This document shows, piece after piece, positions 49,620 through 59,529 of a stretch of 64,000 bases of DNA; the stretch's first letter is position 1, and each line of letters starts with the position of its first letter. The stretch covers positions 62,001 through 126,000 of the forward strand of contig NZ_BOOA01000005.1 in NCBI RefSeq assembly GCF_016862995.1. The letters run 5' to 3'. The translations under genes were made by a program, and so were the position numbers. This stretch comes from Acrocarpospora phusangensis (GTDB lineage: Bacteria > Actinomycetota > Actinomycetes > Streptosporangiales > Streptosporangiaceae). The notes below the pieces were generated by a model. That model did no database searches, had not been told where the DNA came from, and worked only from the letters and a program-made list of their open reading frames with translations.

Positions 49620-50114
49620 ATGGAGGTCCGTTTGGACGGCATGTCCCCGTCCGTGGCCGGGACGGCGTACGTCGCCGCCGGCGCGGTGCTGGTCGGCGAG
49701 GTGCGGGTGGAGGAGGAGGCGAGCGTCTGGTTCAACGCCGTGCTCCGCGGCGACACCGGCGCGATCGTTCTCGGGGCGCGCAGCAACATCCAGGACCTGG
49801 CGGTCGTGCACGAGGAGACCCGCATCGGCACGGGTGTCAGCGTCGGCCACCGGGCCACGGTGCACCGGGCGGTCGTGGGCGACGACGTGCTCGTCGGCAT
49901 GGGTGCCATCCTGCTGAACGACTCCCGCGTCGGATCCGGGGCGATCGTCGCCGCCGGCGCGGTCGTCCGCGAAGGGTTCGAGGTGCCGCCGGGATGCCTG
50001 GTCGCGGGCGTGCCCGCCCGAATCGTCCGCGAGGTCACCGAGAAGGAACGGGAATCCATCCGGGAAAACGCCGCCGCCTATGTCAGACTCGCTGCGAGAT
50101 ATCGGACGATGTGA
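49620..50114 (+). CDS. Gamma-class carbonic anhydrase family protein
   Basis: A 164-residue left-handed beta-helix with hexapeptide repeats. VWFNAVLRGDTGAIVLGARSNIQDLAVVHEE and SVGHRATVHRAVVGDDVLVGMGAILLNDSRVG contain the three His metal ligands (VVH, VGH, TVH) of the gamma-CA/PaaY group. The ATG follows the hydrolase stop directly with no ribosome site, so translation is probably by re-initiation. PaaY-like members act as thioesterases in catabolic pathways, an alternative to carbonate chemistry. It closes the importer-side operon. Confidence 0.88.
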   Translation: MEVRLDGMSPSVAGTAYVAAGAVLVGEVRVEEEASVWFNAVLRGDTGAIVLGARSNIQDLAVVHEETRIGTGVSVGHRATVHRAVVGDDVLVGMGAILLNDSRVGSGAIVAAGAVVREGFEVPPGCLVAGVPARIVREVTEKERESIRENAAAYVRLAARYRTM

Positions 50115-50218
50115 GGTCCGGCTTGTCCGTCCATCCGCGGACTATCCGCCGCGGGCGCAATGCGAAATGTCGGACGGTGTGGGTGGGCCGATTGTCCGTC
50201 CAGCGCGGACTATTCGCC
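50102..50218. repeat. Pair of 49-bp imperfect direct repeats upstream of helR
   Basis: Copy A (50102-50150) and copy B (50170-50218) share TTGTCCGTCCA and CGGACTAT plus a TCGGACG start; the copies are about 80% alike and 68 bp apart. Each contains GTCCG and CGGAC in inverted orientation. Copy A covers the gamma-CA stop. The remainder of the 309-bp gap holds the RAE block and the leader. Confidence 0.75.
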
Positions 50219-50254
50219 AGGAAGCTGAAGGGAGAGGGGGCGAACCCGCTCCTC

Positions 50255-50317
50255 TCCACTTCTAACCTATAGCGCACCCCGGGGCTTGCGGCAAGACCCC
50301 CCTCGTGCCGCAGAATC
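50255..50317 (+). promoter_or_regulatory. Rifamycin-associated element (RAE) within extended promoter block of helR
   Basis: The palindromic RAE GGGGCTTGCGGCAAGACCCC is at 50281-50300. It is flanked by TCCACT (50255), TATAGCG (50268-50274, likely -10) and GTGCCGCAGAATC (50305-50317). All lie at the same spacing in the rgt block at 59453-59515 (49 of 63 positions identical). TGCGGCA (50287-50293) can pair with TGCCGCA (50306-50312). RAEs mediate induction by rifamycins in actinomycetes. Confidence 0.88.
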
Positions 50318-50379
50318 AGCGGCCGAAGCCAGAAGCTGCGGAAACGGGGGGTTCGACGTGCGTGTGTCGTCGTCGGCGT

Positions 50380-50427
50380 ATGGCCATCAAGTTCAACATC
50401 AAGTTCAACAAGGTGTGGTTGCCGTGA
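50380..50427 (+). CDS. Possible 15-codon leader ORF overlapping the helR start
   Basis: ATG at 50380 opens MAIKFNIKFNKVWLP and stops at TGA 50425-50427, which overlaps the helR GTG (50424) as GTGA. The peptide is rich in Lys, Phe, Asn and Ile, against the Ala/Gly/Arg bias of this genome. A perfect 12-bp tandem repeat ATCAAGTTCAAC (50386-50409) encodes its IKFN-IKFN core. No clear Shine-Dalgarno precedes it, so it could be chance. If real, it would couple or attenuate helR translation. Confidence 0.35.
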   Translation: MAIKFNIKFNKVWLP

Positions 50428-52556
50428 GCGCGTTCGACCTTCCCGGCAATCTCGCCGCCAAGGCCGACCCGAAACTGATCGCCGCTGATGAGCGGCATTT
50501 CGCGGCCATCGCGGAAACCCTGGAGCAGTCGATCGCCGAGCTGTCCGAACGCCTGGACGCCGAGCGCAGGGCGCCCGGCGGCGCGGGCCGCAGGGCGCTG
50601 GACCGGGACCTGGAGATCCACCGGCTGACCGCCCGCCTGCGCGCCCTGCGCCGTTTCGGCCTGGACCTGTGCCTCGGGCACATGGTCGGCGCGGACGGCT
50701 CCGGGCCCGTGTACGTCGGACGGCTCGGCCTCACCGACAGCGCGGGACGCCGGCTGCTGCTCGACTGGCGTTCCCCGGCGGCCGAGCCGTTCTTCGGCGC
50801 CACCCACGCCAACCCGATGGGCCTGGCCAGCCGCCGCAGGTACCGCTGGACCCGGGGCAGCATCAGCGACTACTGGGACGAGGTGTTCACCCCGGACGGG
50901 TTCGACGGTCACGCCGCGCTGGACGACCAGTCCGCGTTCATCGCCAGCCTGGGCGGCAACCGGTCGGGCAGGATGCGGGACGTGCTCGGCACCATCCAGG
51001 CCGACCAGGACGCGATCATCCGCGCGGGTTCGCGCGGCGCTCTCGTCGTCGACGGCGGGCCGGGCACCGGGAAGACCGTCGTGGCGCTGCACCGCTCCGC
51101 CTACCTGCTCTACTCCGACCCGCGGCTCGGTCACCGCCGGGGCGGTGTGCTGTTCGTCGGGCCGCACCAGCCGTACCTGGCGTACGTCGCGGACGTGTTG
51201 CCGAGCCTCGGCGAGGAGGGGGTGCGGACGTGCACGCTGCGGGACCTCGTCGCCGAGGGAGCGGCGGCGACGGTCGAGGCGGACCCGCGGGTGGCCGGGC
51301 TGAAGTCGTCCGCGGATCTGGTGAAGGGGATCGAGAAGGCGGTCCGGTTCTACGAGAACCCGCCGGCCACGGGGATGAAGGTGACGACCCCGTGGGCGGA
51401 CGTCTGGCTGAGCGCCGAGGACTGGGCGCAGGCGTTCGAGGCGCCGGAGCCCGGCACCCCGCACAACGAGGCGCGGGACCAGATCCTGGAGGAACTGCTC
51501 ACGATCCTGGCGGACAAGCACGACGAGGACGTGCCGCCGGCTCTGCTGCGCAGGGCGCTGCTGCGGGACCGGGAGCTGCTGACGGCCCTCAACCGGGCGT
51601 GGCCGCTGATCGAGGCGGCCGACCTGGTCGGCGATCTGTGGTCGGTGCCCGCCTACCTGCGGTTGTGCGCGCCCTGGCTCGGCCGCGAGGAGGTTCGGGC
51701 GTTGCAGCGCGAGGACGCCCAGGCGTGGACGGTGTCGGATCTGCCGCTTCTGGACGCGGCCCGGCAGCGGCTCGGAGACCCGGAGGCCTCCCGCCGCAGG
51801 CGCCGGGAGGAGGCCGCCGTGACCGCCGAGCGGGAGCGCATGGCGCGGGTGGTCGACGATCTGCTCGCGGCCGACGACGACGGTGAGGGCCTGGTGACGA
51901 TGCTGCACGGGCAGGACCTGCGGGACGCCCTGGTCGACGAGACCGCCCTGCCCGGCGTCGCCCCGGACCTGCTGGCCGGCCCGTTCGCGCACATCGTCGT
52001 GGACGAGGCCCAGGAGCTCACCGACGCGGAGTGGCAGATGCTGCTGCTGCGCTGCCCGTCCCGGAGCTTCACCATCGTCGGGGACCGGGCCCAGGCCAGG
52101 CACGGGTTCACCGAGTCGTGGCGGGAGCGGCTGGAGCGGATCGGCCTCGACCGGATCACCCTGGCCTCCCTCAGCATCAACTACCGGACGCCGGAGGAGG
52201 TCATGGCGGCGGCCGAGCCCGTCATCCGCGCCGTGCTCCCCGACGCGAACGTGCCGACCTCGATCCGGACCGGCGGCGTCCCCGTCGCGTACGGCTCGGC
52301 CTCGGAGCTGGGCTCGATCCTGGACGGGTGGCTGGCCGGGCACGCCGACGGGGTCGCCTGCGTCATCGGCGATCCGGCGTTCCCGGCGACGTCCCGTGTG
52401 CAGTCGCTGACCCCGGAGCTGTCGAAGGGTCTGGAGTTCGACCTGGTCGTGCTCGTGGACCCGGAGGCGTACGGGGAGGGGGTCGAGGGGGCGGTCGATC
52501 GTTATGTCGCGATGACCCGGGCGACCCAGCGGCTGGTGATCCTCACGACCCCCTGA
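50424..52556 (+). CDS. helR: HelR-type RNA polymerase-recycling ATPase (HelD-like)
   Basis: The 710-residue protein starts SAFDLPGNLAAKADPKLIAADERHFAAI and has an N-terminal coiled arm, a UvrD-like ATPase with Walker A GGPGTGKTVVALHR, a motif II HIVVDEAQELTDAEW, SINYRTPEEVM and a C-terminal VDRYVAMTRATQRLVIL. The arm and the split ATPase match HelD/HelR proteins that clear stalled RNA polymerase; HelR also releases rifamycins from the enzyme. An RAE lies 124 bp upstream of the start. The GTG at 50424 fits homologous N-termini; GTG 50415 is an alternative. Confidence 0.9.
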   Translation: MSAFDLPGNLAAKADPKLIAADERHFAAIAETLEQSIAELSERLDAERRAPGGAGRRALDRDLEIHRLTARLRALRRFGLDLCLGHMVGADGSGPVYVGRLGLTDSAGRRLLLDWRSPAAEPFFGATHANPMGLASRRRYRWTRGSISDYWDEVFTPDGFDGHAALDDQSAFIASLGGNRSGRMRDVLGTIQADQDAIIRAGSRGALVVDGGPGTGKTVVALHRSAYLLYSDPRLGHRRGGVLFVGPHQPYLAYVADVLPSLGEEGVRTCTLRDLVAEGAAATVEADPRVAGLKSSADLVKGIEKAVRFYENPPATGMKVTTPWADVWLSAEDWAQAFEAPEPGTPHNEARDQILEELLTILADKHDEDVPPALLRRALLRDRELLTALNRAWPLIEAADLVGDLWSVPAYLRLCAPWLGREEVRALQREDAQAWTVSDLPLLDAARQRLGDPEASRRRRREEAAVTAERERMARVVDDLLAADDDGEGLVTMLHGQDLRDALVDETALPGVAPDLLAGPFAHIVVDEAQELTDAEWQMLLLRCPSRSFTIVGDRAQARHGFTESWRERLERIGLDRITLASLSINYRTPEEVMAAAEPVIRAVLPDANVPTSIRTGGVPVAYGSASELGSILDGWLAGHADGVACVIGDPAFPATSRVQSLTPELSKGLEFDLVVLVDPEAYGEGVEGAVDRYVAMTRATQRLVILTTP

Positions 52557-52593
52557 AACCGGTCGCCCGGTTTGTCCTGTTTGATCCATTTGC

Positions 52594-52611
52594 CCTGTAG
52601 TGCGCTACAGG
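52594..52611. promoter_or_regulatory. Perfect palindrome CCTGTAG-N4-CTACAGG, MerR operator candidate
   Basis: Seven-base arms with a TGCG centre end 16 bp before the MerR ATG at 52628. Position and symmetry suit binding by the MerR dimer and autoregulation. Confidence 0.7.
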
Positions 52612-52627
52612 TGGCACAGTCGTAGGC

Positions 52628-53053
52628 ATGCGCAAGGTACTTCTTCCCGACGTCGGCGTGGAGGTCCCGGACGCCGGCCTGTCGATCAGTGAGGCGGCCA
52701 GGGCGACCGGAGTCGGCGTCGAAGCCCTTCGCTACTACGAGCGCGAAGGGCTGCTGCTGGACCCGGCTCCGCGGGACGGAGGCGGGCACCGGCGCTACGG
52801 CAAGGGCGATCTGGCCTGGATCGCCGGGCTGGTCATGCTGCGGGAGACGGGGATGTCGATCGCCGACATGCGCGTCATGGCCGACCTGTGCCGGCGTACC
52901 GGTACGGAGGCCGAGCGCCTGGAGGTGCTGACCCGGCATCGGGACCGGGTGGTCGAAGAGGTCCTGCGCACGCAGCGGCATCTCCAGGCCATCGACAAGA
53001 AGATCGCCGCGTACCGGGCGGTCGCCGGCGAGCCCGACGACCGTCGGGGATAA
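52628..53053 (+). CDS. MerR family transcriptional regulator
   Basis: A 141-residue MerR protein: SISEAARATGVGVEALRYYEREGLL, a wing GGHRRYGKGDLAWIAGLVMLRETGM, and a long dimer helix. A 17-residue extension precedes the HTH. The C-terminus (VLRTQRHLQAIDKKIAAYRAV) resembles regulators found beside aldo/keto reductases, and such a gene lies 90 bp downstream on the same strand. The operator palindrome sits just upstream. One Cys (DLCRR) may be redox-active. Confidence 0.88.
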   Translation: MRKVLLPDVGVEVPDAGLSISEAARATGVGVEALRYYEREGLLLDPAPRDGGGHRRYGKGDLAWIAGLVMLRETGMSIADMRVMADLCRRTGTEAERLEVLTRHRDRVVEEVLRTQRHLQAIDKKIAAYRAVAGEPDDRRG

Positions 53054-53143
53054 ACCACCCGGCACGTCACCACTCCGGCTTGCCGACGCCCGGCATGACT
53101 ACTTTGCGCATTCAATCAAGCACTTAGAGAGAGATTTCTGGAT

Positions 53144-54118
53144 ATGAAGGACATCAGTCTCGGAGGCCAAGGGCTCCGGGTGTCCCCGCAGGGCTTCGGC
53201 GCCATGGGCATGAGCGCCTTCTACGGAGCCCGCGACGAGACCGAGGCCGTCGCCACCCTCAACCGGGCCGTCGACCTCGGCATCACCCACATCGACACCG
53301 CCGAGGCCTACGGCCCGTACGAGAACGAGAAGCTGATCGCCCGGGCGCTGGGCAGGCGGCGGGACGAGATCACCATCGCCACGAAGTTCGCGCTCGACTT
53401 CGACAACGGCGCGGTGATGGACGGCAGCCCCGCCCACGTGCGCCGGGCCGTGGAGCGGTCGCTGCGCCACCTAGGGGTGGACACGATCGACCTCTACTAC
53501 CTGCACCGGGTGGATCCGGCCGTGCCGATCGAGGAGACCGTCGGCGCCATGGCCGAGCAGGTCGCGGCGGGCAAGGTCCGCTACCTCGGCCTCTCCGAGG
53601 CGGGTCCCGAGACCATCCGCCGCGCCCACACGGTCCACCCGATCACGGCGGTCCAGTCGGAGCTGTCGCTCTTCGCGCAGGATCACCTGTTCAACGGGGT
53701 CAAGCGGACGCTCGACGAGCTCGGGATCGGCCTGGTCGCCTTCTCGCCCATCGGCCGCGGCCTCCTCACCGGCGCCATCCGCAGCCTCGACGACCTGGAC
53801 CGGGACGACGCCCGCAGGACGCTGCCCTGGTTCACGCCGGAGAACATCGAGGCCAACGCGCCGCTGGTGGACGGCGTCCGCGAGATCGCGGAGACCCGCG
53901 GCGCGACCCCGTCCCAGATCTCCCTGGCGTGGGTGGCCGCGCAGGGCGCGGTGCCCATCCCCGGCACCAAGCGCCGCCGGTACCTGGAGGAGAACGCGGC
54001 GGCCGTGGAGATCGAGCTCACCGAGGCGGAGTTGCGGGCGCTGCGCGAGGCCGTACCGGACGGGGCCGTGAGCGGCGCCCGCGACACACCCGCGGGCCTT
54101 GCCAGGAACAACCTGTGA
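53144..54118 (+). CDS. Aldo/keto reductase
   Basis: A 324-residue AKR of the YajO/AKR13 type. The catalytic tetrad can be read: Asp in GITHIDTAEAYG, Tyr in YGPYEN, Lys in IATKFAL and His in YYLHRVDP. The NADPH-binding end has PIPGTKRRRYLEENA. It reduces aldehydes or ketones; its partner regulator is the preceding MerR, so oxidative or electrophile induction is likely. AGAGAG precedes the ATG. It is convergent with the MMPL gene, 4 nt apart. Confidence 0.9.
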   Translation: MKDISLGGQGLRVSPQGFGAMGMSAFYGARDETEAVATLNRAVDLGITHIDTAEAYGPYENEKLIARALGRRRDEITIATKFALDFDNGAVMDGSPAHVRRAVERSLRHLGVDTIDLYYLHRVDPAVPIEETVGAMAEQVAAGKVRYLGLSEAGPETIRRAHTVHPITAVQSELSLFAQDHLFNGVKRTLDELGIGLVAFSPIGRGLLTGAIRSLDDLDRDDARRTLPWFTPENIEANAPLVDGVREIAETRGATPSQISLAWVAAQGAVPIPGTKRRRYLEENAAAVEIELTEAELRALREAVPDGAVSGARDTPAGLARNNL

Positions 54119-54122
54119 CCGG

Positions 54123-56273
54123 TCAGCCGATGCGCTCGGGCACGCGTTCCGCGGACGCGGCCAGGTGGTGGCTGAGCCGCTCGCCCTCCACGTCGAGGTC
54201 GGGCAGCACCCGGTCCAGGACCTTCGGCAACCACCAGGCCGCCCTGCCGAGCATCGCCATCACGGCCGGGACCAGCGTCATGCGCACCACGAACGCGTCG
54301 ATCAGCACGCCGAGCGCCAGCGCGAAGCCCATCGACTTGATGATCGGGTCGTCCATGAAGACGAAGCCGCCGAACACCGAGGTCATGATGAGCGCGGCGG
54401 CGGTGACCACGCGGGCGTTGTGGCCCATGCCGTTGATCGTGGCCTGCCGGGCGGTGTCGCCGTGCACGAAGTCCTCGCGCATGCGCGAGACCAGGAACAC
54501 CTCGTAGTCCATGGCCAGGCCGAACAGGATGCCGATGAGCAGGATCGGCAGGAAGCTGACCAGCGGGCCCGGCACCTCGACGCCGAACAGCCCGGCCAGG
54601 GTCCCCTCCTGGAAGATCGCCACGGTGATGCCGAACGTCGACCCGATGGTCAGCAGGAAGCCGAGCGCCGCCTTCACCGGCACCAGGATCGACCGGAAGA
54701 CCAGCATCAGCAGCAGGACCGAGAGGCCGACGACGAGCAGCAGGTAGACGGGCATGGCCTCGCCCAACTTGTCCGACACGTCGATGCCGACGGCGGTCGC
54801 GCCGGTGACGGAGATCTCCGCGCCCGCGACCGTGGCGACCTTGCCCCGGATGGCGTGCACGGCCTCCTCGGTGGAGGCGGCGGTCGGGCCCTCCTTGGGG
54901 ATGATCGCCAGCAGCGCGGTCGTGCCGGTCGCGTTGGGCTGCGGCGGCGCGACCGCCAGCACGCCCGGCACCTGCTGGATCAGCGCGGCCGCCTGACCGG
55001 CGGCGGCGGTCACGGCGGCGGCGTCCTCGGCCGAGACGACGGCGATCAGCCGCGCGTTGAAGCCCTCGCCGAAGCCCTCGCTGGTGAGGTCGTAGGCGGC
55101 GCGCGCCGGGGTGCCGGGCGCGGCCGTGCCCGCGTCGGGCAGCGCCAGCCGCAGATCCTGGGCGGGCAGCGCCAGTACGCCGAGGCCGGCGATGCCGACC
55201 AGCAGGATCGGCACCCGCAGGCGGCTGACCAGCCGTCCCCACGTGTAGCCGAAGCCCTCCGTGGCGATGACCTGGCCGTCGCGCTGCTTGCGGGGCAGGA
55301 CGCGCGGCCCGGCGTACGCGAGGATCGCCGGCAGCAGCGTCAGCGCGACGAGCACCGCGACGGCGACGGTCCCGGCGGCGGCCAGGCCCATGACGGTCAG
55401 GAACGGGATGCCGGCGACGAACAGGCCGGCCAGCGCGATCACCACGGTCGCGCCGGCGAACACGACGGCGGATCCGGCGGTGCCGGTGGCCCGGCCGGCG
55501 GCCTCCTCCGGCTCCAGCCCTTCGGCCAGGAACTGGCGGTAGCGCGAGGTGATGAACAGCGAGTAGTCGATGCCGACGGCCAGGCCCAGCATCAGCGCGA
55601 GCACGGGGGTCACGGAGGTGAGTTCGGCGACGCCGCTGAGGGCGTACAGGCCGGCCATGCCGACCCCGACGCCGACCAGCGCGTTGAGCAGCGTCATACC
55701 GGCCGCGACCAGCGACCCGAAGGTGACGATCAGGACGATCGCGGCGATCAGCACGCCGATCGCCTCGGAGCCGCCGACCTCGGGCGCGGCCCGCAGCACC
55801 TCGCCGCCGTGCTCCACCTGGATGCCGGTGGCGGAGGCCCCCGCCTTCAGGTACGCCTCCCGCTGGGCGTCGGTGATGTGGTCGACGTTGTCCTTGAACT
55901 GGACCTGGACCAGCGCGTACCGGCCGTCGGGGGAGAGGGCGCGGGCCTGGAAGGGGTCGATCGCGGCCAGCACGCCCGGTACGGCGGCGGCCTCCCGCAC
56001 CACCGGGGCGACGGCCGCCGGGTCCAGCTTGCCGCCTTCGGGGGCGGCGATCACGATGGTGCCGACGGCGCCGCTGGCCTGCGGGAACTCCCGTGCGAGC
56101 GAGTCGAGGGCACGCTGGGACTCGGTTCCCGGCATGGAGAACTTGTCGCTGGACGGGCCGTGGAACAGGGCGGCGGCCACGCCCATGAGCGCGAGCAGCA
56201 GCAACCAGACGGCGGCGACTCGCCCCCGGTTGCGGAAGGAGAACCGGCCGAGCCGGTACAGCAGGGTCGCCAT
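54123..56273 (-). CDS. MMPL family transporter
   Basis: A 716-residue RND-type permease with about twelve membrane segments and two large outer loops. Hallmarks are AVGIDYSLFITSRYRQFLAEGLEPEEAA (first repeat) and LFGLAMDYEVFLVSRMREDFVHGDTARQA (second repeat), with the conserved Asp/Tyr pair of MMPL proton relays. It exports lipids or lipophilic drugs using the proton gradient; the cargo is unknown. The TetR gene immediately upstream is a probable repressor. Confidence 0.92.
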   Translation of the reverse strand: MATLLYRLGRFSFRNRGRVAAVWLLLLALMGVAAALFHGPSSDKFSMPGTESQRALDSLAREFPQASGAVGTIVIAAPEGGKLDPAAVAPVVREAAAVPGVLAAIDPFQARALSPDGRYALVQVQFKDNVDHITDAQREAYLKAGASATGIQVEHGGEVLRAAPEVGGSEAIGVLIAAIVLIVTFGSLVAAGMTLLNALVGVGVGMAGLYALSGVAELTSVTPVLALMLGLAVGIDYSLFITSRYRQFLAEGLEPEEAAGRATGTAGSAVVFAGATVVIALAGLFVAGIPFLTVMGLAAAGTVAVAVLVALTLLPAILAYAGPRVLPRKQRDGQVIATEGFGYTWGRLVSRLRVPILLVGIAGLGVLALPAQDLRLALPDAGTAAPGTPARAAYDLTSEGFGEGFNARLIAVVSAEDAAAVTAAAGQAAALIQQVPGVLAVAPPQPNATGTTALLAIIPKEGPTAASTEEAVHAIRGKVATVAGAEISVTGATAVGIDVSDKLGEAMPVYLLLVVGLSVLLLMLVFRSILVPVKAALGFLLTIGSTFGITVAIFQEGTLAGLFGVEVPGPLVSFLPILLIGILFGLAMDYEVFLVSRMREDFVHGDTARQATINGMGHNARVVTAAALIMTSVFGGFVFMDDPIIKSMGFALALGVLIDAFVVRMTLVPAVMAMLGRAAWWLPKVLDRVLPDLDVEGERLSHHLAASAERVPERIG

Positions 56274-56313
56274 GAGTTGGGGGTCTCTCCCTGTGAGGTG
56301 ATCTGTGAGGTGA

Positions 56314-56850
56314 TCAGTCGGTCGGGCGGCCGAGGGTGCGCAGCGCGCCCCGGGTCAGTTCCACACGCATGACCTCGTCGGGGACGTCGACGCCGCGGGC
56401 GCAGCTGAGGAAGATGCCGACCAGGGCCATCCAGCCCGCGACCCGGCACTCCTGCCCCGGGGCGCGGCCGACCAGGGCGTCCACCAGGCTCTCGGTGGCG
56501 TGGTCGACGTCGGGCAGTTCGGGGTGGCCGAGCAGGTCGTCGACGTCCACGATCAGGATCTTGACCTGGCGGCGGAACCGCAGCGCGAGCTCCACCAGCC
56601 CTTCGACGGCCTCCCGCGCGGCCTGCTCGCCTTCGAGGGGGGCGAGCTTCTCCTGGATGGTTTCCAGGTCCCGCCCGACCGGCGCGAACAGCTCGCTCAG
56701 GATCGCGTCCTTGTTGGTGAAGTGGTAGAGCAGGGACGCCTTGGAGCAGCCCACGTCGGACGCGATGTCCTGGAGGGACGTGCCGCGGAAGCCGTGGGCG
56801 GCGAACAGGCGGGCCGCCGACTCCAGGATCTCCGCGCGCATCGAGGTCAT
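56314..56850 (-). CDS. TetR family transcriptional repressor of the MMPL transporter
   Basis: A 178-residue TetR: RAEILESAARLFAAHGFRGTSLQDIASDVGCSKASLLYHFTNKDAIL is the HTH; the C-terminal ligand domain is variable. The ATG at 56850 is chosen over a TTG at 56859. It lies 40 bp upstream of the MMPL gene on the same strand. The perfect 35-bp dyad beginning 15 bp upstream covers its promoter and is a strong candidate for self-repression, with release by an exported ligand. Confidence 0.92.
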   Translation of the reverse strand: MTSMRAEILESAARLFAAHGFRGTSLQDIASDVGCSKASLLYHFTNKDAILSELFAPVGRDLETIQEKLAPLEGEQAAREAVEGLVELALRFRRQVKILIVDVDDLLGHPELPDVDHATESLVDALVGRAPGQECRVAGWMALVGIFLSCARGVDVPDEVMRVELTRGALRTLGRPTD

Positions 56851-56864
56851 GACGCCCAACCTAG

Positions 56865-56899
56865 CTGACCGATCGGACAGGATCTGTCCGATCGGTCAG
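56865..56899. promoter_or_regulatory. Perfect 35-bp TetR operator dyad
   Basis: Arms CTGACCGATCGGACAG (56865-56880) and CTGTCCGATCGGTCAG (56884-56899) are exact complements around GAT. Each arm also contains CCGATCGG, itself a palindrome, so two dimers could bind on opposite faces. It lies between the TetR gene and the divergent methyltransferase promoter. Confidence 0.88.
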
Positions 56900-56958
56900 A
56901 AGGTAAGCCAAATCACACGAACCGTTCCCCGATTGTCGCGCACAGGTACTTAAACGGA

Positions 56959-56987
56959 TTGACAATCAACTCATTTGAGTATTCTAT
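56959..56987 (+). promoter_or_regulatory. Consensus promoter for a leaderless methyltransferase mRNA
   Basis: TTGACA (56959-56964) and TTCTAT (56982-56987) are separated by exactly 17 bp. The expected start site, 7-8 bp further, falls on the ATG at 56995. ACTCATTTGAGT in the spacer is an inverted repeat that a repressor could occupy. Confidence 0.75.
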
Positions 56988-56994
56988 GGCGTTC

Positions 56995-57597
56995 ATGAAC
57001 GCTCGGACCTGGTACAACATGGGCTATCGGCTGGCCAGGATGCCGTGGGAGATGGGGCCGCGGCAGGAACTGGTCGAACTCGTGTCCGGCGGGCGGCTGC
57101 TGCCGTGCCGGGCCCTCGATCTCGGCTGCGGGACCGGCGCCAACGCCATCTACCTCGCGCGGCACGGCTTCGACGTCACGGGCGTCGACTTCGCGCCCGC
57201 GGCGCTGGCCAAGGCCAGGCGGGCCGCGGCAGCCGCCGGGGTCGCCGTGCGGTTCGTGGAGGACGACCTCACCGGCCTGCGGAACCGGTACGGGGAGTTC
57301 GATCTACTCGTCGACTACGGCACCCTCGACGATCTGTCGCAGGACAACCGGGCCAGATACGTCGCCAACGTCCTGCCGCTGACGCGGGCCGGCACGCGGT
57401 TCCTGCTCTGGGCCTTCGAGTGGCCGCCGCGCTGGTTCGAACGGCGGATCGGCCTCGGCCCGATGGCGCCCGGGGAGGTGGTGCGGCGTTTCGGCGGTGA
57501 GTTCGCCATCGAGCGGATCGCGGGCACCGAGACGCCCGGGCGGTGGCGGATGATTCCGGGGGTCGCCGCGTACCTGATGACCCGGACGGCCGGGTGA
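56995..57597 (+). CDS. SAM-dependent methyltransferase
   Basis: A 200-residue methyltransferase with motif I LDLGCGTGANAIYLARHG (about 40-57), VTGVDFAPAALAKARR, VEDDLTGL and LLVDYGTLDDL. The last, rather than the usual D-x-I-h-C-x-x-x, suggests the thiopurine/tellurite-like subgroup; the substrate is unknown. The start at 56995 was chosen from the promoter spacing, which gives a leaderless mRNA, and from the absence of any Shine-Dalgarno. It lies between two resistance-type regulators. Confidence 0.82.
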   Translation: MNARTWYNMGYRLARMPWEMGPRQELVELVSGGRLLPCRALDLGCGTGANAIYLARHGFDVTGVDFAPAALAKARRAAAAAGVAVRFVEDDLTGLRNRYGEFDLLVDYGTLDDLSQDNRARYVANVLPLTRAGTRFLLWAFEWPPRWFERRIGLGPMAPGEVVRRFGGEFAIERIAGTETPGRWRMIPGVAAYLMTRTAG

Positions 57598-57651
57598 AGG
57601 ACGCCGCCGGTGGTAGAGTTGCCAAGATCATGTAACTGACAGGCGAGGATC

Positions 57652-58128
57652 GTGGTGGCCGAGCAATCCGAGGGCGAGGACCTCGCGCTCTCGCTCACCC
57701 ACGAGCTGTTCGACCTGGGCACCGCCATCGACCTGATCGGCAACGCCGCCGCCACCCGGCTGGGCATCAACCAGACCGACCTCATCTGCCTGAACCTCCT
57801 GGTCCGGTACGGCCCCATGAGCCCCGGCCAGATCGCCGCCACCCTGGGCGTCACCACCGCCGCCATCAGCGCGATGGCCTCCCGCCTGGAGTCCGGCGGG
57901 TACGCCCACCGCGAGATCGACCCGGCCGACCGTCGCCGCGTCCTCCTGCACGCCTCACCCACCGGCGCCAGCCAGGCGTTCAACCTGTTCGACCACTTCT
58001 ACGCGGCGACGGCGGCCCTCCAGGAATCCTCCACCGAGAGCGAACTCCGCGCCCTGCTCACCCTGCTCACGCGATTCCGCGAAGTCATCCAGGAACAGGC
58101 CGCCGCGATCCGCTCCGACGACACCTGA
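57652..58128 (+). CDS. MarR family transcriptional regulator
   Basis: A 158-residue MarR protein with the winged HTH NLLVRYGPMSPGQIAATLGVTTAAISAMASRLESGGYAHREIDPADRRRVLLHASP. Helices at both ends form the dimer. GAGG precedes the GTG at 57652; GTG at 57655 is equivalent. AGTTGCC and GTAACT in the 54-bp gap upstream are possible half-sites. It is convergent with rgt, but no link to rifamycin control is shown; MarR proteins usually regulate neighbouring genes such as the methyltransferase. Confidence 0.88.
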   Translation: MVAEQSEGEDLALSLTHELFDLGTAIDLIGNAAATRLGINQTDLICLNLLVRYGPMSPGQIAATLGVTTAAISAMASRLESGGYAHREIDPADRRRVLLHASPTGASQAFNLFDHFYAATAALQESSTESELRALLTLLTRFREVIQEQAAAIRSDDT

Positions 58129-58197
58129 GCAGGACGCACGTCACCGATGACGAGGTGTTCGGCCGGTTCGAGATCGTTGATGCGCGTGTATCCATCT

Positions 58198-59421
58198 CTA
58201 CTTCCAGCGGGCAGCCTTTCTCCGGCTTGCCGCGTCGAGCAGTAGCTTCGCGGCCATCGTCGTGCCGTCGGTGCGGATCGCGGCGGCCACGGCCGACGCT
58301 CGGGCCCGGGTCTCGGGGGCCAGGGCGGTCCTGAGCGCGGCCGACAGGGACTCGGTGGTCGGAGTGGGACCGTCGTGGCCCGCGCCGATGCCCAGGTCGG
58401 CCACCCGGCCCGCCCAGTAGAGCTGGTCTCCCGCCTGGGGGACAACCACCTGGGGAGCGCCGGCCCTGGCGGCCGTCGTCGTCGTTCCCGCGCCGCCGTG
58501 ATGGACGACGGCGGCCACCCGGGCGAACAGCGCCTGGTGGTTGACCTCGCCGACGGCGAAACAGTCGTCCCGATCGTCGATCAGGGCCAGGCCGGCCCAG
58601 CCGCGACCGACGAGCGCGCGGCGGCCCTGCGCGCGGATCGCCTCGATGGCCGCCCGGGCGGTGTCCTCCGAGACGCCGCGCATGCTGCCGAAACCGGCGT
58701 ACACCGGGGGTTCGCCGGCGTCCAGGAACGCCAGCAAGCCGGCGGGGAGCGGCCGTTCGTCCGGCAGGATCCACGCGCCGGTGTGGACGACGTCGAGGTC
58801 CGGGGTCTGCCGCCACGGGCCCAGGGTCGGGTCCGCCGCCAGCCATGGCCGGTCGGTGAAGATGAAACCGCGCACGTCGTCGACCCGGGGCAGGCCGATC
58901 GAAGCCCGGTGGGTGTTGAGCGCTTCGCCGTGCAGCGCGTTGAAGGTCCGGGCGTTCAGGTCCCACAGCACCCGGTTGTCCGTCACCCCCGGCGGGACCG
59001 ACTCTCCCGCCAGGACCAGCGGCGGCGGATGGTACGGCGACGGCAGCAGGAACGAGCAGAAGGTCGCGTACACGTAGGGGATGTCCAGCTTCTCCGCCAC
59101 CGACCGCGAGGCGAAATGCGCCAGCCCGGTCGCCAGGAGCGCGTCGTATCCCTCGGCCGCCGCCGCGATGGTGTCGTACAGCGCGGCCAGTTCGGACACG
59201 CGCCGGGACGCCTCCGCAGCGGACGAGGGCCGCACCATCGAGCCCATCGGCGGGCCGACCGGCACCAGCGGCACGCCGACACCGGTCAGCAACTCCGCGA
59301 ACTCCTCGTCCGGCGGCGCGCACACCCGCACCTCCGCGCCGAGCTCCCGCAGTCGCACGGCGAGCCCCGCCACCGGTTCGACATCGCCCCGCGACCCGTA
59401 CGTCGACAACAACACCCGCAT
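58198..59421 (-). CDS. rgt: Rifamycin-type glycosyltransferase (MGT/GT1 family)
   Basis: A 407-residue GT-B enzyme. The N-terminus MRVLLSTYGSRGDVEPVAGLA and VRVCAPPDEEFAELL are typical of antibiotic glycosyltransferases, with the UDP-sugar-binding motif HHGGAGTTTTAARAGAPQVVVPQAGDQ in the C-lobe. Rgt enzymes glucosylate the C-23 hydroxyl of rifamycins. The assignment rests on family resemblance plus the RAE block immediately upstream. The ATG at 59421 has GGGGG six bases before it. Another macrolide-type glycosyltransferase is the main alternative if the RAE were absent. Confidence 0.85.
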   Translation of the reverse strand: MRVLLSTYGSRGDVEPVAGLAVRLRELGAEVRVCAPPDEEFAELLTGVGVPLVPVGPPMGSMVRPSSAAEASRRVSELAALYDTIAAAAEGYDALLATGLAHFASRSVAEKLDIPYVYATFCSFLLPSPYHPPPLVLAGESVPPGVTDNRVLWDLNARTFNALHGEALNTHRASIGLPRVDDVRGFIFTDRPWLAADPTLGPWRQTPDLDVVHTGAWILPDERPLPAGLLAFLDAGEPPVYAGFGSMRGVSEDTARAAIEAIRAQGRRALVGRGWAGLALIDDRDDCFAVGEVNHQALFARVAAVVHHGGAGTTTTAARAGAPQVVVPQAGDQLYWAGRVADLGIGAGHDGPTPTTESLSAALRTALAPETRARASAVAAAIRTDGTTMAAKLLLDAASRRKAARWK

Positions 59422-59452
59422 CTCGCACCCCCGATTCCTTACCGGTTCCGGC

Positions 59453-59515
59453 GATTCTGCGGCACACCCCGGCTCTTGCCGCAAGCCCCCCGGCTCGCTA
59501 TACGTTGAGAGTGGA
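59453..59515 (-). promoter_or_regulatory. Rifamycin-associated element (RAE) within extended promoter block of rgt
   Basis: On the minus strand GGGGCTTGCGGCAAG occupies 59475-59489; TATAGCG is at 59496-59502, TCCACT at 59510-59515 and GTGCCGCAGAATC at 59453-59465. The order and spacings equal those at helR, with no gaps over 63 bp. The block ends 31 bp before the rgt ATG. Confidence 0.88.
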
Positions 59516-59529
59516 AGGCGCGCCTCGGG

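What the first reader, a model, noticed from the sequence alone, without database searches (positions are those of the whole stretch)
50255..59515. helR and rgt share a 63-bp promoter-RAE-leader block, not only the known RAE
Both genes carry the RAE (50281-50300; 59475-59489 minus strand). Around it, TCCACT, AAC, TATAGCG, the RAE core and GTGCCGCAGAATC occur at identical spacing, 49 of 63 positions matching with no gap. The conserved 3' element can pair with the RAE core (TGCGGCA/TGCCGCA, 12-nt loop in both), so a DNA dyad and an RNA hairpin are both possible. This suggests the RAE sits at the transcription start of a defined promoter class. That the RAE is known to mediate rifamycin induction is established; the extension is what I see here.
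Basis: partly seen in the sequence, partly recalled or inferred. Interest (0 to 1): 0.82.

Follow-up and report, generated by a model that had tools for sequence, protein, structure and literature searches.

The report
Back-to-back promoter behind rifamycin resistance genes
The DNA signal known to switch on rifamycin-resistance genes in actinobacteria looks like the shared middle of two promoters that point in opposite directions, and this switch seems to have been handed from one resistance gene to another, sometimes leaving a scrap of the old gene behind.

Summary
helR and rgt share the block, and so do the other two RAE genes of this genome, a second rgt and rox. Other genomes add rph, arr and a DrrA-like ABC ATPase.

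In 102 sites chosen by the RAE alone, the opposite strand has TANNNT exactly 21 bp left of the RAE centre in 99; the gene strand has CANNNT exactly 21 bp right in 96. Each strand has TTGC[S]G in the RAE, 19 bp from its hexamer. I read the RAE as the overlapping -35 region of two back-to-back sigma-A promoters, not a transcription start. TATAGCG as a sense -10 and the RNA hairpin are not supported.

The outward promoter looks stronger (T-12 in 100/102, purine discriminator in 92/102), the gene-ward one conserved weak (C-12 in 98/102). This resembles the B. subtilis antisense-promoter rifampicin alarm, but divergent and overlapping. RAE letters beyond -35 needs keep an unknown binding factor possible.

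26 of 161 distinct non-rgt leaders keep fossils of the rgt gene start: promoter capture.

Transcription and rifamycin sensing were not tested.

The parts
50281..50299 (.). RAE palindrome of helR, dyad centre 50290
50286..50291 (+). predicted -35 (TTGCGG) of gene-ward promoter S
   Evidence: 19 bp from its -10
50289..50294 (-). predicted -35 (TTGCCG) of outward promoter A, overlapping that of S
   Evidence: 19 bp from its -10
50311..50316 (+). predicted -10 (CAGAAT) of S, 21 bp from dyad centre
   Evidence: CANNNT at this offset in 96 of 102 sites
50264..50269 (-). predicted -10 (TAGGTT) of A, 21 bp from dyad centre
   Evidence: antisense TANNNT at this offset in 99 of 102 sites
50253..50263 (-). 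conserved discriminator and first transcribed bases of A; start predicted near 50257
   Evidence: columns -27 to -37
50323..50326 (+). predicted start region of the helR transcript from S
   Evidence: distance from the -10 only; not mapped
50358..50383 (+). degenerate copy of an rgt start (GTG 50358, +68) in the helR leader
   Evidence: DNA alignment with rgt; below the 22-bit protein threshold used
50424..52556 (+). helR coding sequence from GTG 50424
   Evidence: weak UvrD-type helicase matches in Pfam
59471..59489 (.). RAE of rgt, dyad centre 59480
59454..59459 (-). predicted -10 (CAGAAT) of S of rgt
59501..59506 (+). predicted -10 (TACGTT) of A of rgt
59507..59517 (+). conserved discriminator and first transcribed bases of A of rgt
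58198..59421 (-). rgt coding sequence from ATG 59421 (glycosyltransferase)
   Evidence: Pfam EryCIII-like_C and Glyco_transf_28

Best explanation
The block is a pair of back-to-back, overlapping sigma-A-type promoters. The RAE is their shared -35 region: TTGC[S]G on each strand, each 19 bp from its own -10. S (-10 CANAAT) reads into the resistance gene. A (-10 TANNNT with a purine-rich discriminator) reads away from it. Only one RNA polymerase can use the RAE at a time and A is built to win, so A holds S down without drug; rifamycin upsets that balance and frees S. The unit has moved between unrelated resistance genes by recombination, in several cases out of an rgt gene. Shown from sequence: anatomy, exact spacing, asymmetry, breadth, gene classes, rgt fossils. 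Inferred: that A and S are transcribed, that they exclude each other, and how rifamycin shifts them. One candidate for the last step: A is held by initial complexes whose RNA is longer than rifamycin permits (2-3 nt), so the drug shortens its occupancy.
For: RAE-only sites: antisense TANNNT at exactly -26..-21 in 99 of 102 (next best offset 3 of 102), CANNNT at exactly +21..+26 in 96 of 102. Weighted columns A-26 .98, T-22 .98, A-21 .95, A+22 .95, T+26 .95. Asymmetry: T-12 100/102 for A, C-12 98/102 for S; purine discriminator 92/102 for A, 0/102 for S. Same picture in helR, rox, rgt, rph, and the few arr and ABC sites, in HelR loci chosen by protein (of 31 RAE-like blocks facing the gene, A intact in 28, S in 29) and in 11 of 225 genomes of the phylum outside the class. 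PMC10719064: the RAE overlaps the -35 of a mapped M. smegmatis helD promoter. PMC12802891: in B. subtilis an antisense promoter, also with a 19-bp spacer, holds helD down until rifampicin acts. Fossils of rgt in 26 of 161 distinct non-rgt leaders; 20 rounds of shuffled leaders gave one hit in all.
Against: No transcript was measured. The left hexamer also reads YANNNT on the gene strand in 99 of 102, so it could be a sense -10. M. smegmatis helD has a mapped sense start about 20 bp upstream of the RAE, which this model does not explain. RAE letters that a -35 does not need are conserved though unasked: GGG .99/.93/1.00, CCC .83/.93/.84, C-5 and G+5 1.00 (84 rows chosen by eye), middle CNG in 140 of 150 listed rows. 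That points to a dedicated binding factor. In B. subtilis, bringing the promoters close enough to clash abolished induction, and five E. coli bidirectional promoters showed no competition at basal level. Plain steric exclusion predicts that rifamycin-trapped polymerase at A would block S more, so an extra step is needed.
Confidence: 0.5

Rival explanations
1. The RAE is the operator of an unknown dimeric regulator that responds to rifamycin or to stalled polymerase. It sits over the -35 of the gene-ward promoter and represses or activates it. The outward hexamer is a second promoter under the same regulator, or a by-product of a symmetric site.
For: RAE letters beyond a -35 are nearly invariant although not asked for. 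The authors of PMC10719064 and PMC12802891 also suspect a factor.
Against: A symmetric operator alone does not explain why A has T-12 and a purine discriminator while S has C-12, why the left flank is conserved out to -37, or why the right arm is looser than the left. No candidate regulator is in hand; neighbouring genes were not searched for one.
Confidence: 0.33
2. The left hexamer is a sense -10 (YANNNT, -27..-22) of an upstream tandem promoter, as mapped for M. smegmatis helD, and there is no outward promoter. Rifamycin shifts use between two tandem promoters, as proposed for mycobacterial rpoBC.
For: YANNNT on the gene strand at -27 in 99 of 102. Two sense starts are reported for M. smegmatis helD, and the rpoBC precedent is described.
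Against: No conserved -35 for it. A-21, at 2.32 bits the better conserved end of the hexamer (-27 has 1.06), is unexplained. The predicted start would be about 6 bp, not about 20 bp, from the RAE. The spacing to the RAE is rigid.
Confidence: 0.1
3. The conserved part is a structured RNA leader that controls elongation or translation.
For: The helix is present in both window copies. Cells paired are slightly above permuted partners (612 of 714 against 606.5, 13 of 500 reach it).
Against: 40 of 102 keep all seven pairs; 4 swapped against 26 broken pairs at the most variable position; +-6 mostly G-A or G-G. The conserved left flank would be upstream of the S transcript. Induction is reported as transcriptional.
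Confidence: 0.03

Closest known systems
Rifamycin-associated element (RAE) of actinobacteria
   Same: Same 19-bp palindrome, before rifamycin-resistance genes, needed for induction (PMC10719064 section 9, PMC12802891 discussion; primary papers recalled, not held).
   Different: Described there as a 19-bp palindrome possibly bound by a factor and overlapping the -35 of one sense promoter. Here it is the middle of a unit of about 70 bp with two opposed -10 hexamers.
B. subtilis dual-promoter rifampicin alarm (helD, pps; PMC12802891)
   Same: A stronger antisense promoter opposes a weaker sense promoter of a rifampicin-protection gene; the antisense spacer is 19 bp.
   Different: There the promoters converge and must not overlap; here they diverge and share the -35 region, so the mechanism cannot be the same collision model.
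Bidirectional promoters of the Warman/Grainger type (PMC12825309)
   Same: Pseudo-symmetric DNA that can bind polymerase in two orientations, one excluding the other.
   Different: Those share the -10 element; here the shared element is the -35, and the two -10s lie 42 bp apart. The left hexamer YANNNTA could in addition be of their kind.

Membership tests
RAE | 19-bp palindrome around CTTGCNGCAAG upstream of a rifamycin-resistance gene | tested here: met
   the rgt copy in the window has GAGCC instead of G(A/G)CCC in the right arm
RAE | mediates induction by rifamycins | not testable with these tools
   published for other species; no expression data here
sigma-A promoter | -10 with A-11 and T-7 conserved | tested here: met
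   A-11 and T-7 .95 to .98 on both sides
sigma-A promoter | -35 like TTGACA at 16-18 bp | tested here: inconclusive
   TTGC[S]G keeps TTG; the spacer is 19 bp on both sides; the standard scan finds no promoter
B. subtilis dual-promoter alarm | sense and antisense promoter upstream of the same gene | tested here: met
   by sequence only
B. subtilis dual-promoter alarm | convergent, non-overlapping arrangement (39 bp between starts) | tested here: not met
   divergent and overlapping; definition
Bidirectional promoter with shared -10 | opposed -10 elements overlap, starts either side of or within them | tested here: inconclusive
   A and S do not share a -10; the left hexamer alone reads both ways in nearly all sites
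Structured RNA leader | compensatory base changes in the stem | tested here: not met
   (4 swapped against 26 broken pairs at the most variable position)

The most novel reading that the evidence does not exclude
The rifamycin sensor of actinobacteria is not a regulator protein but this promoter pair itself: RNA polymerase parked on the outward promoter represses the resistance gene, and the drug releases it by acting on that polymerase. The same drug-sensing promoter has been captured repeatedly by unrelated resistance genes across the phylum, partly by cutting down an rgt gene and keeping its promoter.
Probability: 0.25. Interest if true: 0.88.

Novelty: new variant of a known kind. Interest (0 to 1): 0.7.

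Why it matters
How the RAE senses rifamycins is stated to be open in a January 2026 paper (PMC12802891). The anatomy found here makes it directly testable: losing one or the other -10 separates a promoter-pair mechanism from a regulator. It also gives a 53-bp signature for rifamycin-response genes with little background (135 of 296 class genomes, control in 1 of 296), which already points to an ABC transporter that was not among the RAE genes named in the passages I read. The rgt fossils show how a drug-responsive promoter is passed to new resistance genes.

Tried and rejected
RNA hairpin between the RAE core and GTGCCGCAG, and an RAE self-hairpin: not supported by pair counts (an earlier count on 84 rows). 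There is a slight excess of paired cells over permuted partners, told in the rivals.

TATAGCG as sense -10 with the start in the RAE: not supported, T at its sixth position has weighted frequency .00.

Common leader peptide: in both window copies a TTG inside the RAE opens a frame that runs into the gene. Not pursued; gene starts, projected from homology, lie at +56 to +561 from the RAE centre.

Standard promoter/terminator scan of 49900-50450: none found; its rules (16-18 bp spacer, 9 of 12 matches) leave out this promoter type. No terminator for an outward transcript was seen there.

Mobile carriers: no exact match to the block in viral contigs. 36 plasmid records, 28 of them Streptomyces, hold DNA similar to window 50245-50345; not followed.

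M. smegmatis helD itself was wanted, to place its two mapped starts. The one named-genome scan did not list it among its 80 loci; M. wolinskyi (L241) is a relative by recall.

Rows dropped or handled by hand: L027 could not be oriented and is not in the 163 sites; L039 lacks a full left flank, so 102 of 103 RAE-only sites are counted. L005-L025 of the own genome were not used. In one search, 13 of 104 sites were oriented by eye from the block; all but L081 and L173 are oriented by the gene. In one search I left out near-duplicates and evident chance rows by eye, which may inflate the arm frequencies. In one search the best upstream candidate was picked by a score that includes the flanks, which favours intact blocks where the core has a mismatch. 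Weights are identity clusters, not a tree. Four of the 165 leaders repeat earlier loci (L267, L268, L270, L273), so 161 are distinct.
Full report
WHAT WAS CLAIMED AND WHAT IS THERE. Searches confirm it letter for letter. The genome that holds the window has three exact and two one-mismatch copies of GGGGCTTGCGGCAAG. Four of these five carry the full block, before helR, rgt, a second rgt-like gene and a rox-like monooxygenase; the fifth lacks it (gene names for the last two are from the sequence and later homology, not from an annotation).

BREADTH. The RAE alone (GGNNCTTGCNGCAAGNNCC) is in 120 of 296 genomes of the class; its reversed control also hits about 27 genomes, so this short pattern has a background. 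From these and later searches I took 163 distinct oriented sites. The genes behind them are helR 68, rox 51, rgt 17, rph 13, arr 9, DrrA-like ABC ATPase 3, unassigned 2. Pfam supports the arr (Arr-ms), rph (PPDK_N) and ABC examples tried. In one search the list of sites where gene and block orientation conflict was empty; 60 of the 163 sites had been chosen by the block.

ANATOMY. Count from the dyad centre of the RAE. In the 102 RAE-only sites with full flanks, the opposite strand has TANNNT at exactly -26..-21 in 99; the next best offset within 140 bp has 3. The gene strand has CANNNT at exactly +21..+26 in 96. Each strand of the RAE carries TTGC[S]G, and each of these is 19 bp from its hexamer. 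In the window: gene-ward -35 50286-50291 and -10 50311-50316; outward -35 50294-50289 and -10 50269-50264. The best conserved columns outside the RAE are those a -10 needs: A-26 .98, T-22 .98, A-21 .95 and A+22 .95, T+26 .95 (104 sites, effective number about 27). Conservation runs on from the left hexamer to -37 as a mostly pyrimidine tract on the gene strand, that is a purine-rich discriminator and start for the outward transcript. Beyond -40 it fades.

NOT AN ARTEFACT OF THE SEARCH. A pattern asking only for the two hexamers (without the -12 base of S) and TTGCNGCAA hits 135 of 296 genomes; the reversed pattern hits one. The RAE arms GGG/CCC reappear unasked (84 typed rows). With the middle three bases of the RAE free, 140 of the 150 listed rows still have CNG, 9 have one change (TTGCGTCAA 3, TTGTGGCAA 4, TTGCCACAA 2) and 1 looks like chance; the list is cut, and controls hit 3 of 296 genomes. 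HelR loci chosen by protein give an independent sample. Of 80 loci, which include HelD paralogues, 31 have an RAE-like block facing the gene; A is intact in 28 and S in 29. The four core mismatches never fall in TTG or CAA. One more, L228, has the block facing away, and 48 have none. Outside the class, 11 of 225 genomes of the phylum have the block with its arms, 12 sites, 7 of them with CATAAT as gene-ward -10 and two without the C-12. The other non-class rows of that call lack the arms and look like chance, and controls hit 4 genomes.

ASYMMETRY. The outward hexamer has T at -12 in 100 of 102 and four purines after it in 92. The gene-ward one has C at -12 in 98 and never four purines; its discriminator averages 3.2 G/C of 4 against 1.6. 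By general promoter knowledge (recalled: sigma region 1.2 favours a purine-rich, GGGA-like discriminator) the outward promoter should bind more stably. A weakness kept across a class is likely useful.

WHY OUTWARD AND NOT SENSE. The left hexamer also reads YANNNT on the gene strand in 99 of 102. I prefer the outward reading for four reasons. A-21 is its T-12 and would otherwise be unexplained (2.32 bits, against 1.06 for -27). Its -35 would be the RAE at the same 19 bp as the gene-ward promoter, whereas the sense reading has no conserved -35. The conserved tract falls where a discriminator and start would be. The spacing to the RAE is rigid. Against it stands a published sense start about 20 bp upstream of the RAE in M. 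smegmatis (PMC10719064 section 9), which neither reading explains well. Both could be used, as in bidirectional promoters with a shared -10 (PMC12825309, abstract and passages).

MECHANISM. [quoted passage not shown] In B. subtilis a stronger antisense promoter silences helD until rifampicin arrests polymerase there; its spacer is also 19 bp (PMC12802891 sections 47, 48, 50). The same paper says the RAE mechanism is open and a factor is possible. Inferred here: S and A exclude each other at the shared -35, A normally wins, and rifamycin tips the balance. The weak point is the last step. Trapped polymerase at A should block S more, and in B. subtilis bringing the promoters together abolished induction. 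So either A's hold depends on RNA longer than rifamycin allows, or a factor bound to the RAE takes part. RAE letters beyond -35 needs favour a factor; the asymmetry and the conserved outward start favour a role for A. I give 0.5 to the promoter pair as the working switch and 0.33 to a regulator as the main cause.

PROMOTER CAPTURE. In the window, helR's leader aligns (with gaps) with rgt up to about rgt codon 9: score 25.0, 1000 shuffles at most 19.0. At the protein level this copy is too decayed to pass the threshold used below. The pattern is general. Of 161 distinct leaders of non-rgt genes, 26 (helR 11, rox 10, rph 5, none of arr or ABC) hold a stretch similar to the rgt N-terminus at 22 bits or more. 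Twenty rounds of dinucleotide shuffles of the 165 leaders gave one such hit in all (25.4 bits). In 25 of the 26 the relic start codon projects to +64 to +72; intact rgt genes start at +59 to +71 in seven of the eight whose start matched a motif, of 17 rgt sites. 19 of the 26 have at least one stop in that frame before the new gene, so these are fossils. Among loci of the window's own family 11 of 24 leaders have one. The rox gene of this genome has one too (L004). Thus part of the spread of the RAE unit was replacement of the body of an rgt gene by another resistance gene. The direction, rgt to others, is inferred from the remnants.

LITERATURE LIMITS. The searches cover only openly licensed PMC papers. 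I saw listings from all of them, passages of six papers, and full sections of two. In what I saw there was no mention of an outward promoter at the RAE or of rgt fossils. The primary RAE papers (Spanogiannopoulos 2014, Hurst-Hess 2022, Surette 2022) are not held; they are cited from recall or through reviews and could contain part of this.

VERDICT. Observation confirmed and extended; interpretation partly supported. By sequence the RAE block is a conserved back-to-back promoter unit, a new variant of known kinds (RAE, bidirectional promoter, antisense-promoter alarm). Its function remains to be tested.

Noticed in passing
L075, L140, L141; three genera of one family (seen again as L266, L268, L270): The full block stands before a DrrA-like ABC transporter ATPase (Pfam ABC_tran; DrrA1-3_C in two of three), a candidate rifamycin-response efflux gene.
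   Followed up: partly
window 50380-50427: A 15-codon ORF (ATG 50380, repeated AAGTTCAAC) ends in a TGA that overlaps the GTG start of helR, so helR may be translationally coupled. The frame from the TTG at 50286 also runs into helR.
   Followed up: no
L173: A full block stands before a gene with an Amidase_2 domain, not a known rifamycin gene.
   Followed up: no
L228 (Pseudonocardia xinjiangensis): A block 291 bp upstream of a HelD-family gene points away from it.
   Followed up: no
L147, L149, L150, L151, L171, L172: Two different types of Arr-ms ADP-ribosyltransferase, judged by their N-termini, both stand behind the block.
   Followed up: no
window 50120-50225: Upstream of the helR block TTGTCCGTCCA...GCGGACTAT occurs twice by eye, with an indel; the repeat tool at minimum length 20 reported none.
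   Followed up: partly
L194, L205, L218 (mycobacteria): Named HelR loci with a decayed or shifted left or right hexamer, natural variants that could be compared for inducibility.
   Followed up: no
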